Source: Kiloniellaceae bacterium (GTDB lineage Bacteria; Pseudomonadota; Alphaproteobacteria; Kiloniellales; J153). Taken from it: a DNA stretch of 64,000 bases. Numbering within the stretch: the first letter of the stretch is position 1; each line of letters begins with the position of its first letter. The notes under the pieces were generated by a model. It did no database searches and was not told where the DNA came from. It worked only from the letters and a program-made list of their open reading frames with translations. This document shows, piece after piece, positions 48,801 through 59,035 of this stretch. Position numbers and translations under genes: made by a program. The stretch is taken from NCBI GenBank assembly GCA_021776115.1, contig JAJFGN010000049.1, positions 62,001 to 126,000 on the forward strand, in the 5' to 3' direction.

Positions 48801-50168
48801 TTACCAGCCGGCGGCCTTCTGCCTGGCGATCACCGCCTTGGCCCGCTGCGAGAAGCGCAATGCCTCACCATAGGTTTCAACGCCAGCCTCGGCTAGGAAC
48901 GGCAGCATGCGGACATAAACTTCCGCCGTGACCAGCGAATCGCCGAGTGCGGTGTGGCGGCCATGAACGTCGACCGCAAAGTGTTCCGCCAGATCCTCCA
49001 GGGACAAACCTGGCAGTCCGAGGTTGAGCGACGCGGCCAGCAGTAAGGTGTCCAGAACCGCCGGCTCCTCCCAGGGCAAGCCGGCCAGGATACTTTCCCG
49101 GCGCAGCATCGCGACATCGAAGGCGACGTTGTGGCCGATCCATACGGTATCGTGCGCAAGCGGCGCGAAGCTGGCGAAGACCGCCGGGAAGAGGTCGGCG
49201 TCGGCCACCATGGCGTTAGTAATTCCGTGCACGGCGGTTGAGCGCGCCGGTATCGGCACCCCCGGCCGAATCAGACGGTCAAAGCTCAAGCCGCGATACA
49301 GGCGCCCGCCGCACACGCGCACGGCGCCGATCGAAACGACGCGATCCACGGCGGTATCTAGCCCCGTTGTCTCGGTATCCAATACGGTCGCGTGCAAATC
49401 CACGACCCGCGTATTGTCGCTCACGGGCGAGAGCGCCGGCGGCCGATCGTGCAGCGCCAGGTCATGGTCCACTTCGGCCCGGTGTTCGGCGATGCCGTGG
49501 TCGAAAGACAAGACCGCGCCCCCGTGTTCCTCCAGGCTTACGATACGCCCCGATAACTCCACACCGTCGACGGTTCTCAGCCTGGCCTCTACCGCCGCCC
49601 CCTTCCGCCGCGACCGCTCGAGCGCGGCGATCACAGGATCGCGCTCCAGCGCCGCGAAAACCGAGGTTCCGACCCGCACCCTTTCGCTGCCCAGCAGGGC
49701 CTTGCCCGGAAAGTTGACCAAACTAACCTGGCCCTGCTCGGTCATGACGACCAGGGCCTCCGAGACCGACGCGAGGATGGCGCCAAGCCTTTGGTCGGGT
49801 GCTGCACGCTCCTCGGCATAGCGCGCGGATAAGCCTGCCAGCGCACCGCACAGCCGCTGGATCTCGAGGGCGGTGTCGTCCTCTTCGCGCAACGGTAGGA
49901 CTGCGCTTCGATTGCCGGTCAAGGTCACGATAGCGCCGCGCGCGCGCTCGAGATCGCGAAAGTGCCGCCTCACAAGGTCGAAGACGTGCCAGAGCGCGGC
50001 AGCCGCCACGATTGCCGCGCCGCCGGCGGCCACTGCCATCACGCCCAGCTGAGCGCCAGGCGCCCGCGCCGCGAGGGCGAACCAACCTGCTAGGGCGGCG
50101 AGGACGCACAACGCCGCAAGGGCACCAGCCAAGGTCGCCTCGATTGCCTTGCGTACGCTCCTCGTCAT
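48801..50168 (-). CDS. Membrane-anchored PAS-like/DEDDh 3'-5' exonuclease (DnaQ-like)
   Basis: Two N-terminal TM segments; PAS-like middle; VLDTETTGLDTAVDRVVSIGAVRV...GHNVAFDVAML...GRHTALGDSLVTAEV. Confidence 0.88.
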   Translation of the reverse strand: MTRSVRKAIEATLAGALAALCVLAALAGWFALAARAPGAQLGVMAVAAGGAAIVAAAALWHVFDLVRRHFRDLERARGAIVTLTGNRSAVLPLREEDDTALEIQRLCGALAGLSARYAEERAAPDQRLGAILASVSEALVVMTEQGQVSLVNFPGKALLGSERVRVGTSVFAALERDPVIAALERSRRKGAAVEARLRTVDGVELSGRIVSLEEHGGAVLSFDHGIAEHRAEVDHDLALHDRPPALSPVSDNTRVVDLHATVLDTETTGLDTAVDRVVSIGAVRVCGGRLYRGLSFDRLIRPGVPIPARSTAVHGITNAMVADADLFPAVFASFAPLAHDTVWIGHNVAFDVAMLRRESILAGLPWEEPAVLDTLLLAASLNLGLPGLSLEDLAEHFAVDVHGRHTALGDSLVTAEVYVRMLPFLAEAGVETYGEALRFSQRAKAVIARQKAAGW

Positions 50169-50186: not shown

Positions 50187-51656
50187 TTAGAAGACATCGC
50201 CCGTGAACTCCCCATGGACGCGCTTCTTCAGGTGATCGATGGCCTTGAGCGAATCGACCAGCATATCCTTTTCACGTTCGGTCAGGTTGTCCGGGTGAAC
50301 GTGATTGCCAACCTTTCCGCCCGCGCGAAAATCGGAAAGCTGCTGACGCAACAACAGAAAGGTGATGTGGTTGAAGGCCCCGCGCAAGTAGTCGGCGTCG
50401 TTGTCGCTCAGCACCCCTGCTTTGTGCAGCGCGCGGATGCGCTTTAGCGTGGCCGTGTCTTCAACCCCCTCGCGCAGCGCCAAGAGGCGAACCGCACCGA
50501 CCAGCGGCAGGGTTCCGGCATGCTTCAGGTTGATCTTGCCAATATGTTCCTTCTTCGCATCCCTACCCGATTCGGTCACGAAGCGGCCGAACCAGCCCAG
50601 CGCGACCCCATATTCGTACAACTCAGCCTCGATCGCCTGCAGATAGGCCGGGTTCTTGCGAACCATTGCGCTGGCGTCGCGGCGCAATTCCCGCGCGAAG
50701 TCGGTGCGCCCATAGCCGCAGCCGAAATCGAAAAAGATGCTGGAAAATTGCACCGCGATGGTGCCGCGCCGGCGACCCCAGATGCCAAGCTGCTCCCGCC
50801 ACTGAGCACGGGTCTTGCGCCATAGCGGGTTGGTCGCCATGACGTATCCGTTGCAGTAAGGAAAGCCGACCGTGTCCAGATCGCGGGTGAAACGCTCTGC
50901 CAATTCTATGAAGAAGGAATCGATCCCGGTGTGCTTCGCGTCGGGATAGTTGTCGAGGATGAAGCCGTTATCCTGATCGGGAAAAAGAAAGTTCTCGCCG
51001 CGGCCGCCAGACCCCATGATGAGCAAGGTGAAGGGCACCGGCGGCGCCCCCCAGCCCGCCGCCTTCATGGCCGCCAATTGGGCTTCGAGTATGCGCCGGT
51101 GAATGCCCCGGTTTATGTCTGTGATCAGGGCCTGGATTTCGGGAACCGGCACATGGTCCCGCAAAAGCTGCGTGGCGATTTCGGCTTGCGCCGCCTTCAC
51201 GTCCCGCAGACCGTCAATGCTGTCGCCCCTGGTGACGAGATCGATCTGATGGATGACCTGCTCGGCGGCTACGGCCAGGGCGTCGCTCAAGAGGATTTCG
51301 CCAACCGGCCGCTCCTCGGCATCGACAACCGGCATATGGCGCCAGCCGAAGCGGCGCATGCGAACGATCGCGCGATACAGAAAATCGTCGGCGCGGACCG
51401 CCTCAACGGGCGACGTCATGACCGAGGACACCGGATCGTCGCCGCCGCTGCGCAACGCGATTCGGCGGGTCACGTCCTGCTCGGTAATCAGGCCCAGGAG
51501 GCGCCCGTCCGGGTCCGTGATCAAAGCCGAGGTCGTACGGACCCCCGACATTCGGCCCAGCATCTCGGCAATGCTGGTGGCCGCCGGAATGACAACCTGC
51601 GCCGGGCGCATGCTATCGCTCACAGGTTGGGAGAAGATCTTCAGTTGGGATTGCAC
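50187..51656 (-). CDS. CBS-domain protein with DUF294 nucleotidyltransferase-like and substrate-binding domains
   Basis: Tandem CBS (LITDPDGRLLGLITEQDVTRRIA; MPVVDAEERPVGEILLSDAL); LLIMGSGGRGENFLFPDQDNGFIL nucleotidyltransferase motif. Confidence 0.92.
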   Translation of the reverse strand: MQSQLKIFSQPVSDSMRPAQVVIPAATSIAEMLGRMSGVRTTSALITDPDGRLLGLITEQDVTRRIALRSGGDDPVSSVMTSPVEAVRADDFLYRAIVRMRRFGWRHMPVVDAEERPVGEILLSDALAVAAEQVIHQIDLVTRGDSIDGLRDVKAAQAEIATQLLRDHVPVPEIQALITDINRGIHRRILEAQLAAMKAAGWGAPPVPFTLLIMGSGGRGENFLFPDQDNGFILDNYPDAKHTGIDSFFIELAERFTRDLDTVGFPYCNGYVMATNPLWRKTRAQWREQLGIWGRRRGTIAVQFSSIFFDFGCGYGRTDFARELRRDASAMVRKNPAYLQAIEAELYEYGVALGWFGRFVTESGRDAKKEHIGKINLKHAGTLPLVGAVRLLALREGVEDTATLKRIRALHKAGVLSDNDADYLRGAFNHITFLLLRQQLSDFRAGGKVGNHVHPDNLTEREKDMLVDSLKAIDHLKKRVHGEFTGDVF

Positions 51657-51722: not shown

Positions 51723-54494
51723 TCACAACGCCTCCTGGCTTTCCATGTCCGGCGCGGCAACGGCCGCTGCACGGCTGACGGGCAGGGTAAAACTGAATGC
51801 CGCGCCCCGGCCAGGCGCATCCTCGACCCAGATGCGGCCCCCAAAATGTTCGACAATCTGGCGTGAGATCGCCAGGCCCAGCCCGGTCCCACGAGGAAGG
51901 TTCGCGAGCGGTTCGCTCGATTCCTGGAATTTCTCGAATATGATTTGACGGTCGTCCAAGGGCACGCCAGGACCGTTGTCGAGGACGCCCAGATAAAAGC
52001 GGCCACCCAGTTGCCCCGCCAAGATGCTGACTTCGCCGTTAGCGTCATCGCAGAACTTTACCGAATTCGCGATCAAATTCACGATAACCTGCATAAGCCG
52101 GTCGCGGTCGGCATAAACGTGCGGAAGCCATGGATCCGCCTCCAGCTTCAGAGAGATCGAGCGGCTGGTGAGCAAACTGCTCGTGGCCGCAAGAGCATCG
52201 TCAATCACGACACGCGGATCGATGTCGATCATATGCCAATCCATGCGCCCGGCCTCCATTTTCGCCAGGTCGAGAATCTCGTTGATGAGCCGGGTCAGGC
52301 GCTCTGTCTCCTTCACGATGATAGTGAGGAAGCGTTCGCGCTCGGTGGTGTCGAGAGCTGGATTGTCGGTCAAAATTTCACTGAAGGACCGGATGGATGT
52401 TAGCGGCGTGCGCAACTCGTGGCTAACGGTCGAGATGAAGTCGTCCTTCATCTTGTCCAGCTCCTTCAACCGTTCGTTCGCGGCCCGCAGCTCTTGAGTC
52501 GTATTTTGAAGCTCTTGCGATTTCTGTTCCAGACGGTGGCTGTATTCGATGACCTGCGAGGTTTCGTCCAGGATCTTCATGACCTCTTCGATCCCAACAA
52601 CCTCTCCCTTGGCGACCGAGGCGACCATGACCCGCGCCGAAGCGGCGCCGATCGCGCCCGCGAGCAATCGCTCCACGAAACTGACGAGAGCGGCGTCCGC
52701 TTCGCGCAGGCGGTCGAGGTTAAGGTCGCGGCTGCGAGCGTAGTCGCCCAGAACCCGGTCGGATTCCCGCGCACCGATAAAGCGGGCCAGCAGGGTCTTC
52801 AAATCCGCCACGGTCGCGGAACCGCGCCAGAAATTGGTCCCGCCAAAAGCGCCGGAACGGCCCGACACGTCAACGAAAAGCGCACCTTGAATTCGCTCTA
52901 TCGCACCCGGCCGGCTCATCAACGAACCCAAGACATAGCCACCGATATTGGCGACCAGGCTCCAGAACATAGCGTGCGACAGACTATCCATGCCGTCCAG
53001 GCCGAACAGGGCGTAGGGCCGCAGCAACCCGATCTCAAATGGCCCATCCTCGACAAAGCCGATGGGCAGCCAACCGGAGAGCGCGAACAAAGGCAGCAGC
53101 AAGGTGTACAGCCAGAGGGCGAATCCTAGGCTGAGCCCCAAGATCGCACCGACGCGCGTGGCGCCCCGCCAATACATGCCGCCGATCATCGCCGGTGCAA
53201 ACTGTGCGACCGCCGCAAAGGAGACTAGACCGATGGTGACCAGAGCGACGGATTCGCCGATAAAACGGAAGTAAGCATAGCCGAGCAACAACACCGTAAC
53301 GATGCTTCCACGGCGTATAGACAACAGCAATCCACTGAGATCGCCCTGCTCCGCCAGATTGCGCCAATTGAGGCGGAGCAAGACCGGCATAATCAAGTCG
53401 TTGCAGATCATGGTGCTCAGCGCAATGGCGGCCACAATGACCATACCTGTCGCCGCCGACAGACCGCCGATAAAGACAAATAGCGCCAAGCCTTCCCGAC
53501 GTTCCGCCATAGGCACGGTCAGAACAAAGGTATCCGCGTCGACAGTTCCGTCGGGAAAATGCAGCATCCCGCCGATCGCGATCGGCAACACGAAGATGTT
53601 GATGATCAGCAGATAGAGCGGGAATAGCCAGACCGCCTTCTTGAGGTGATCCTCGTTTACGTTCTCGACCACCGCGACCTGAAACTGGCGCGGCAGGCAT
53701 ATGATCGCGGCCATGGACAGCAGAATCAGGGTCGGCCAATGACCGTAGCCGCTATCGCTCGATGTAAACAGCGCGGTGATCTGAGGCGAACGCGCGGCGG
53801 CGGCGAACAAATCGCCGAATCCCCCGTACAGGCCGAAAGTGACGTAGACGCCGACGGCCAGGAATGCGACCAGCTTCACGATGGATTCGAAGGCGATCGC
53901 GGCAACCATACCTTCGTGATGTTCGCTGGCATCTATGTGCCGGGTGCCGAAGAGGATGGCGAAAGCCGCCATCAAAAGCGCAACCAAAAACGCCGTGTCC
54001 TTGAGGACCGGAACATTGCTCGAAATCGGCGGCATGACGACATCCGGGTACTGCACCAGGACATTGAAGCTGGTCGACACCGCTTTCAATTGCAGCGCGA
54101 TGTAGGGTGTGATCCCGAGCACGGCGATCAGCGTGACCAAGCCACCCAGGGCAGCGCTCTTGCCGTAACGCGAAGAAATGAAATCCGCGATCGAGGTTAT
54201 CCGGTGCGCTTTGCAGATGCGGATAATCTTGCGCAGCAGGAAACCCCAGAGCACGAAGGTCAGGGTCGGGCCAATATAGATCGGCAGGAAATCCATGCCG
54301 CTGGAAGCGGCGCGCCCGACGCTGCCGTAGAACGTCCATGACGTGCAATAGACCGCGATGGACAACGCGTAAATGTAAGGATTGGCAATGATGCTGCGCC
54401 CGGCATCGGCGCGTTTGTCACCGTAGTAGGCGATCGCGAACAACAGGCAGAGATACGCCAGCGAGACCAAAAGGATGGACCAACTGGCGAGCAT
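51723..54494 (-). CDS. Na+/solute symporter-sensor histidine kinase fusion (CbrA/CrbS-like)
   Basis: About 13 TM SSS domain; HisKA SHELRTPLTSIRSFSEILTDNPALDTTERERFLTIIVKETERLTRLINEILDLAKMEAG; HATPase GTGLGLAISRQIVEHFGGRIWVEDAPGRGAAF. Confidence 0.95.
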   Translation of the reverse strand: MLASWSILLVSLAYLCLLFAIAYYGDKRADAGRSIIANPYIYALSIAVYCTSWTFYGSVGRAASSGMDFLPIYIGPTLTFVLWGFLLRKIIRICKAHRITSIADFISSRYGKSAALGGLVTLIAVLGITPYIALQLKAVSTSFNVLVQYPDVVMPPISSNVPVLKDTAFLVALLMAAFAILFGTRHIDASEHHEGMVAAIAFESIVKLVAFLAVGVYVTFGLYGGFGDLFAAAARSPQITALFTSSDSGYGHWPTLILLSMAAIICLPRQFQVAVVENVNEDHLKKAVWLFPLYLLIINIFVLPIAIGGMLHFPDGTVDADTFVLTVPMAERREGLALFVFIGGLSAATGMVIVAAIALSTMICNDLIMPVLLRLNWRNLAEQGDLSGLLLSIRRGSIVTVLLLGYAYFRFIGESVALVTIGLVSFAAVAQFAPAMIGGMYWRGATRVGAILGLSLGFALWLYTLLLPLFALSGWLPIGFVEDGPFEIGLLRPYALFGLDGMDSLSHAMFWSLVANIGGYVLGSLMSRPGAIERIQGALFVDVSGRSGAFGGTNFWRGSATVADLKTLLARFIGARESDRVLGDYARSRDLNLDRLREADAALVSFVERLLAGAIGAASARVMVASVAKGEVVGIEEVMKILDETSQVIEYSHRLEQKSQELQNTTQELRAANERLKELDKMKDDFISTVSHELRTPLTSIRSFSEILTDNPALDTTERERFLTIIVKETERLTRLINEILDLAKMEAGRMDWHMIDIDPRVVIDDALAATSSLLTSRSISLKLEADPWLPHVYADRDRLMQVIVNLIANSVKFCDDANGEVSILAGQLGGRFYLGVLDNGPGVPLDDRQIIFEKFQESSEPLANLPRGTGLGLAISRQIVEHFGGRIWVEDAPGRGAAFSFTLPVSRAAAVAAPDMESQEAL

Positions 54495-54501
54495 GTTTAA
54501 C

Positions 54502-54747
54502 TCACCGTGTCCGGCCGGTAAGCGGTTTATCGTTCTGGTCAGGCCGCGACGCGGAACCGAGATCGGCTATCCATGCGACCAGGACGATGATCAAACCCCA
54601 TACGGCGAACAGATAAAGATAAAGAAGCGGCAAACCGAACACGAAGACCTCGGCGCCGAAGATAGCGAGAAACGGCGGACTGAACGCGACGCACCCGAAT
54701 AGAAAGGTCGCGACAGAGCCTTCCGCAATCCGCTTGGGTCCCCTCAT
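54502..54747 (-). CDS. Small two-TM membrane protein (81 aa), possible SSS accessory
   Basis: MRGPKRIAEGSVATFLFGCVAFSPPFLAIFGAEVFVFGLPLLYLYLFAVWGLIIVLVAWIADLG; overlaps the RR stop by 4 nt, and its stop lies 7 nt from the kinase start. Confidence 0.75.
   Translation of the reverse strand: MRGPKRIAEGSVATFLFGCVAFSPPFLAIFGAEVFVFGLPLLYLYLFAVWGLIIVLVAWIADLGSASRPDQNDKPLTGRTR

Positions 54748-59035: not shown

What the first reader, a model, noticed from the sequence alone, without database searches (positions are those of the whole stretch)
51723..59035. Possible undescribed signalling module: SSS-kinase, orphan receiver, DHp-containing XRE regulator and SSS symporter
Gene order: SSS-histidine kinase (51723-54494), small TM protein, stand-alone receiver (54744-55124), XRE-DHp regulator, then a divergent SSS symporter (57074-59035). 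CbrA/CrbS-type SSS-kinases normally signal to a response regulator with a DNA-binding output. Here the only linked regulator is a bare receiver, while the adjacent DNA-binding protein carries a DHp-like element that could receive it. Hypothesis: kinase -> receiver -> XRE-DHp -> symporter (short-chain acid, acetate-like or amino acid uptake).
Basis: inference. Interest (0 to 1): 0.85.

Follow-up and report, generated by a model that had tools for sequence, protein, structure and literature searches.

The report
Acyl-CoA regulator wired to a kinase
A bacterial gene-control protein that senses acetate-type metabolites carries a spare piece of a sensor kinase, always keeps that piece's reactive histidine when it sits beside a transporter-like sensor kinase and a small relay protein, and probably takes orders from both to switch on nutrient uptake; such a circuit does not appear to have been described.

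Summary
The XRE protein (55223-56797) is an ScfR/RamB-family acyl-CoA regulator (HTH, M78-like, ScfRs, C-X2-C-X4-C) with a HisKA DHp hairpin, but no ATPase domain, inserted between HTH and sensor parts. XRE(DHp), stand-alone receiver, 2-TM protein and SLC5-type kinase form a conserved cluster in many Alphaproteobacteria. A receiver lies within 700 nt of 64 of 81 DHp-type ScfRs and of 0 of 32 ordinary ones. The DHp histidine is kept in 64/64 with an adjacent receiver but in 8/17 without; on a tree these are few independent losses, all in the predicted direction. The divergent neighbour also splits cleanly (66:0 against 0:36): DHp-type ScfRs face a transporter (SSS symporter, as here, or an ABC operon), ordinary ones face glyoxylate-shunt genes; both have TGTAAA boxes. 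Acetate--CoA ligase lies beside the kinase operon in several relatives. Most likely: kinase -> receiver -> DHp of the ScfR, integrating an outside signal with intracellular acyl-CoA to control carboxylate uptake. Phosphotransfer to His142 is inferred, not shown; covariation with the receiver was not detected. Architecture apparently undescribed; parts known.

The parts
55223..56797 (-). ScfR/RamB-family regulator with inserted DHp: HTH 7-63, linker helix 104-132, DHp 135-194 (His142), M78-like 255-381, ScfRs 382-522, Cys506/509/514
   Evidence: Pfam/NCBIfam; PrpR alignment; AF2 pLDDT 87.8; alignment
56216..56395 (-). inserted DHp hairpin (residues 135-194); phospho-acceptor His142 codon 56372-56374, Thr at H+4, Arg instead of Glu at H+1, no ATPase domain
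   Evidence: HisKA 34.3 bits over cut-off; clean insertion against ordinary ScfRs; His conservation
54744..55124 (-). stand-alone receiver (single-domain response regulator), no output domain
   Evidence: Response_reg 101 bits; catalytic Asp, DE pair, Thr and Lys conserved in relatives
54502..54747 (-). small 2-TM protein; same place and likely topology as CbrX, the hairpin peptide that binds the CbrA SLC5 domain; ATGA overlap with the receiver stop
   Evidence: conserved in linked loci; no sequence hit to CbrX; analogy PMC13022988
51723..54494 (-). SLC5 (CbrA/CrbS-like N-terminus) sensor kinase, HisKA His692, HATPase_c, no receiver of its own
50187..51656 (-). CBS-DUF294 nucleotidyltransferase-like protein, probably same operon
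   Evidence: linked in relatives
48801..50168 (-). membrane DnaQ-type 3'-5' exonuclease, short form (no pseudo-DHp), probably same operon
57074..59035 (+). divergent SSS symporter, likely target
   Evidence: SSF 104.7 bits; orthologues (80-93% identical) in the same place in relatives
56849..56892 (-). three TGTAAA boxes (56849-56854, 56857-56862, 56887-56892) in the shared intergenic region: putative ScfR operator

Best explanation
The cluster encodes a mixed one-/two-component circuit for uptake of acetate-like carboxylates. The SLC5 kinase, with its small CbrX-like TM partner, reads an external or transported carboxylate and phosphorylates the stand-alone receiver (inferred from families and adjacency). 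The receiver docks on the DHp hairpin spliced into the ScfR regulator, which resembles the kinase's own DHp, and most likely passes its phosphoryl group to His142 (inferred). This alters the ScfR between its DNA-binding and acyl-CoA/[4Fe-4S] parts, so that regulation at the TGTAAA boxes depends on both the outside signal and intracellular acyl-CoA. The targets are the operon itself and the divergent transporter (SSS symporter here, ABC operon in other lineages).
For: Domain content. DHp a clean insertion gained once on the tree. Receiver within 700 nt: 64 of 81 DHp-type against 0 of 32 ordinary ScfRs at <99% identity, 35 of 49 against 0 of 17 at <70%. His kept 64/64 when the receiver is adjacent, 8/17 when not (9 are Y/F/Q). 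Receiver Asp invariant. Best relative of the XRE DHp in its own genome is the neighbouring kinase; no other kinase there reached 1e-3. Thr at H+4 kept in 98/110 while Glu at H+1 (needed for autokinase, PMC3510030) is kept in only 33/110: suits transfer to or from a receiver rather than from ATP. Divergent gene is a transporter in 66/66 DHp-type and a glyoxylate-shunt gene in 36/36 ordinary ScfRs with a neighbour of one of these kinds. TGTAAA boxes upstream of 69/72 and 39/42. Acetate--CoA ligase beside the kinase operon. Precedent for receiver-to-kinase-His transfer in Alphaproteobacteria: MrrA to PhyK/LovK (PMC5964349).
Against: No biochemistry. His-loss cases are few independent events (2 minimum changes; pairwise sign test not significant), and the unlinked lineages that lost His still have the kinase, and where looked at the receiver, elsewhere. 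Eight unlinked loci keep His. No excess covariation between DHp and receiver columns (effective n 35, underpowered). The receiver-TM-kinase core occurs without DHp-type ScfR in some genomes, so the receiver may have other clients. A histidine as terminal acceptor in a DNA-binding protein fed by a receiver is unusual.
Confidence: 0.55

Rival explanations
1. The DHp is a docking and dimerisation platform: receiver (or receiver~P) binds it and changes ScfR activity without moving phosphate to His142.
For: Glu at H+1 mostly lost and no ATPase domain; lineages with Tyr/Phe/Gln at the His position keep the DHp.
Against: His invariant in 64/64 linked loci; a plain docking surface would not need it. 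Losses occur only in unlinked loci.
Confidence: 0.2
2. The SLC5 kinase phosphorylates or hetero-dimerises with the ScfR DHp directly; the receiver is a phosphate sink or tuner.
For: XRE DHp is most like the partner kinase's DHp; H+4..H+16 on average 66% identical between the pair.
Against: Where only one of the two genes lies beside the ScfR it is usually the receiver (e.g. L079, L085, L119, L120, L134, L180), though L048/L171/L173 show the kinase adjacent. A membrane kinase would have to hold a DNA-bound regulator.
Confidence: 0.1
3. The DHp acts as phosphatase or phosphate drain for the receiver, whose real output is another protein (for example the membrane PAS-exonuclease), and ScfR regulation depends only on acyl-CoA.
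For: Thr at H+4, the phosphatase residue (PMC3510030), kept in 98/110; receiver sits next to the long PAS-exonuclease in genomes lacking DHp-type ScfR.
Against: Does not explain why the DHp is fused to a DNA-binding regulator nor the switch of divergent gene from glyoxylate shunt to transporter with DHp gain. The window's exonuclease is the short form without pseudo-DHp.
Confidence: 0.1
4. Neighbourhood coincidence: a relic DHp with no signalling role, inherited from one ancestor together with the gene order.
For: DHp gained once, so all counts share ancestry.
Against: Insert of 65-70 aa kept, with invariant Glu-Ile at H+14/15 and His in 103/110 dereplicated sequences over a very broad range, while the neighbouring exonuclease's kinase-like part has lost its His.
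Confidence: 0.05

Closest known systems
ScfR/IsaR acyl-CoA regulators: RamB, PccR, MccR, MtPrpR
   Same: HTH, M78-like and ScfRs domains; C-X2-C-X4-C [4Fe-4S] motif; tandem near-identical operator boxes; PrpR structure covers residues 208-521 (PMC6765138, PMC10370305)
   Different: a 65-70 aa DHp inserted between HTH and sensor part; linked to receiver and kinase; divergent gene is a transporter, not a glyoxylate-shunt gene
SLC5/STAC kinases CbrA/CbrB, CrbS/CrbR, RpuS/RpuR
   Same: SLC5 transporter domain fused to kinase; small TM gene upstream as CbrX-CbrA; carboxylate or amino-acid uptake context (PMC13022988, PMC9100948)
   Different: linked regulator is a bare receiver, not a LuxR- or NtrC-type response regulator; kinase has no receiver of its own, unlike hybrid CrbS
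Spo0F-Spo0B and CckA-ChpT phosphorelays; MrrA-PhyK/LovK
   Same: receiver handing phosphate to a DHp histidine that has no working kinase (MrrA: PMC5964349; Spo0B and ChpT from general knowledge)
   Different: here the accepting DHp is built into a DNA-binding acyl-CoA regulator, so the relay would end on His; receiver lacks the FATGUY motif of MrrA

Membership tests
ScfR/RamB/IsaR regulators | HTH + M78-like + ScfRs domains | tested here: met
   Pfam HTH_3 35.3, M78 61.5, ScfRs 175.3 bits, all over cut-off
ScfR/RamB/IsaR regulators | C-X2-C-X4-C cluster motif | tested here: met
   C506, C509, C514 invariant; 84 of 92 DHp loci, 2 exceptions being contig ends and 6 one genus
RamB equivalog | NCBIfam NF038139 cut-off 700 bits | tested here: not met
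   349.5 bits: family member, not RamB itself
ScfR/RamB/IsaR regulators | acyl-CoA binding | not testable with these tools
   fold matches CoA-binding PrpR (TM 0.89 of target); no assay
SLC5/STAC kinase (CbrA/CrbS) | SLC5 domain fused to HisKA-HATPase | tested here: met
   PDB 10ED 262 bits over 6-490; HisKA, HATPase_c
SLC5/STAC kinase (CbrA/CrbS) | STAC domain | tested here: inconclusive
   no STAC model hit; 10ED match ends at 490
SLC5/STAC two-component systems | cognate DNA-binding response regulator | tested here: not met
   linked receiver has no output domain in window or relatives
Histidine phosphotransferase (DHp type) | DHp hairpin with conserved His, no working ATPase domain | tested here: met
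   fragment's top structural matches are kinase DHp regions but E 0.1-0.8, weak
Histidine phosphotransferase (DHp type) | phosphotransfer with a receiver | not testable with these tools
   needs biochemistry
FATGUY single-domain receivers (MrrA/SdrG) | PFxFATG motif | tested here: not met
   window receiver reads KPFSTRDI (motif from PMC5964349)

The most novel reading that the evidence does not exclude
A phosphorelay that ends on a histidine inside a DNA-binding, metabolite-sensing transcription factor: transporter-kinase His -> stand-alone receiver Asp -> His142 of an acyl-CoA regulator, making the regulator a coincidence detector of outside supply and inside acyl-CoA.
Probability: 0.45. Interest if true: 0.87.

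Novelty: new variant of a known kind. Interest (0 to 1): 0.72.

Why it matters
Stand-alone receivers are common in Alphaproteobacteria and their outputs are often unknown; this gives one a genetically linked, DNA-binding candidate client with a testable residue (His142). It would show how a one-component metabolite regulator became wired to a two-component sensor by capturing a DHp, with a switch of target from glyoxylate shunt to uptake. Natural controls exist: ordinary ScfRs without DHp, and lineages that lost the His when the operon was split. Cultured hosts are available (Thalassospira, Tistlia, Nisaea, Magnetovibrio, Pelagibius, Neorhizobium SOG26).

Tried and rejected
Covariation of XRE columns with receiver columns (53 pairs, effective n 35): DHp columns not enriched among top pairs. 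Independent-pair test of linkage against His: only 2-5 usable pairs, not significant. Foldseek of the DHp fragment: kinase DHps on top but no E below 0.1, model pLDDT 74. CbrX homology of the TM protein by sequence: no PDB match up to E 10. Regulon search by TGTAAA-N2-TGTAAA: only the local site in the genome; N1-20 gives one more, no more than the reversed control; acetate--CoA ligase of the own genome has no such pair upstream. Literature searches for a DHp inside an ScfR/XRE regulator found none; the library is open-access only.

Full report
WHAT IS THERE. On the minus strand the window holds, in order of transcription, XRE 55223-56797, receiver 54744-55124, 2-TM protein 54502-54747 (its ATG overlaps the receiver stop), kinase 51723-54494, CBS/DUF294 50187-51656 and a membrane exonuclease 48801-50168, with gaps of about 100 nt or less; a symporter (57074-59035) is divergent. 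The XRE protein is an ScfR/RamB-family regulator: HTH_3, Peptidase_M78 and ScfRs all above Pfam cut-offs, plus HisKA at 34.3 bits against a cut-off of 26.9. It aligns with M. tuberculosis PrpR on both sides of the HisKA stretch (68-125 and 208-521); PrpR has only about 18 residues between. It keeps the C-X2-C-X4-C motif (Cys506/509/514) that binds [4Fe-4S] in PrpR, which also binds CoA derivatives (PMC6765138). AlphaFold2 gives pLDDT 87.8, with a long linker helix 104-132 and a hairpin 135-160/166-194; the best PDB match is PrpR. The kinase N-terminus matches the SLC5 part of CbrA (PDB 10ED), whose partner CbrX is a 2-helix peptide encoded just upstream (PMC13022988); the TM protein here has the same place and likely topology but no detectable sequence similarity.

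CONSERVATION OF THE MODULE. Loci came from GTDB species genomes, relatives and a class-wide sample of 395 genomes, with wider stretches fetched. Gene maps show XRE(DHp)-receiver-TM-SLC5 kinase in Kiloniellales, Thalassospira, Tistlia, Nisaea and many unnamed families; a Neorhizobium plasmid carries XRE, receiver and kinase in a row. The DHp is a clean 65-70 aa insertion absent from ordinary ScfRs and gained once on a tree built without the insert. Among loci with enough flank and under 99% identity, a receiver lies within 700 nt of 64 of 81 DHp-type and 0 of 32 ordinary ScfRs (Fisher 4e-16; at under 70% identity 35 of 49 against 0 of 17, 1e-7). Because DHp arose once these are not independent draws.

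THE HISTIDINE. In 110 dereplicated DHp sequences His is kept in 103 and Tyr stands in 7; Thr at H+4 is kept in 98; Glu at H+1 in only 33. In HisKA proteins the acidic residue at H+1 is needed for kinase and Thr/Asn at H+4 for phosphatase activity (PMC3510030), so this DHp looks built for receiver chemistry and not for autophosphorylation. In the loci set, His is present in 64 of 64 with an adjacent receiver and in 8 of 17 without; the nine others have Tyr, Phe or Gln. On the tree this is at least two losses, both in unlinked clades; the direction fits but the independent-pair test lacks power. The unlinked genomes tested still have the SLC5 kinase elsewhere, and where the surroundings were fetched a receiver lies next to it or close by. 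The receiver's Asp is present in 85 of 85. As a contrast, the exonuclease in some relatives carries a weakly recognisable kinase-like stretch with mostly Glu or Asp where His should be (no Pfam HisKA hit).

PARTNER SIMILARITY. The XRE DHp is 33% identical over 119 aa to the neighbouring kinase, and in the window's genome no other kinase reached 1e-3 with the XRE protein as query. Over H+4 to H+16 the two are on average 66% identical in 63 loci, 85% in the window. Direct covariation with the receiver was not found.

TARGET. The gene head-to-head with the ScfR splits perfectly: under 90% identity, 66 DHp-type ScfRs face a transporter (51 a Peripla_BP_6 ABC substrate-binding protein, 15 the SSS symporter) and none a glyoxylate-shunt gene; 36 ordinary ScfRs face isocitrate lyase or malate synthase and none a transporter; 8 of each had no neighbour of these kinds recognised. 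TGTAAA boxes lie upstream of 69 of 72 DHp-type (shuffle mean 7.1) and 39 of 42 ordinary ScfRs. ScfR sites are known to be two near-identical boxes (PMC10370305). The window has three such boxes within 44 bp between XRE and symporter, and the genome's only exact TGTAAA-N2-TGTAAA is there. Acetate--CoA ligase lies immediately before the receiver-TM-kinase operon in L235 and between the ABC operon and the receiver in L172/L175/L177/L178, which makes acetate-like carboxylates the best guess for the stimulus.

HOW IT MOST LIKELY WORKS. Shown: domain content, gene linkage, conservation pattern, enriched boxes, divergent-gene split. Inferred: the kinase charges the receiver (adjacency, family knowledge); the receiver acts on the ScfR DHp (linkage, DHp similarity, His pattern); phosphate reaches His142 (His pattern, MrrA precedent PMC5964349); ScfR output integrates acyl-CoA (PrpR and RamB knowledge); the boxes are ScfR sites (position, family-wide conservation). 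Rivals are docking without transfer, direct kinase contact, a phosphatase or drain role, and relic.

KNOWN OR NEW. Every part belongs to a known family; the combination was not found in the searched literature. It works like a Spo0F-Spo0B or MrrA-PhyK step but is not a member of those systems; it is an ScfR by membership, with an added DHp. I rate it a new variant of a known kind, with a categorically new reading (a relay ending on a transcription factor's histidine) that the evidence does not exclude.

Noticed in passing
L143:1597-3771, L238:6629-8833, L244-L246, L250:9040-11157 (Paracoccus PD1222 PDEN_RS25415), L252:9092-11293: Long membrane PAS-exonuclease (about 700-900 aa ORFs) with a degenerate kinase-like stretch, its His replaced mostly by Glu/Asp, directly beside the stand-alone receiver in 7 of 8 long forms and 0 of 7 short forms; possibly a second client of the receiver. 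The window's copy (48801-50168) is the short form.
   Followed up: partly
L244, L245, L246 (genomes G013, G392, G089), L250: Receiver, TM protein and SLC5 kinase occur without a DHp-type ScfR, so the kinase-receiver core has other uses.
   Followed up: partly
upstream of DHp-type ScfRs; window about 56905-56925: A palindrome-like CAATA-N-TTG motif is upstream of 24 of 72 DHp-type but 2 of 42 ordinary ScfRs; meaning unknown.
   Followed up: no
L121-L126: In one genus the DHp-type ScfR ends early and lacks the C-terminal cysteine motif, so the [4Fe-4S] cluster is presumably lost while the DHp His is kept.
   Followed up: no
L172, L175, L177, L178, L036, L049, L179, L186, L189: Lineages with Phe, Tyr or Gln at the DHp His position, most of them also changed at H+10 (Arg lost), all with the receiver not adjacent: natural loss-of-function set.
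   Followed up: partly
L235:2484-5050: Acetate--CoA ligase gene directly upstream of receiver-TM-kinase on the same strand.
   Followed up: yes
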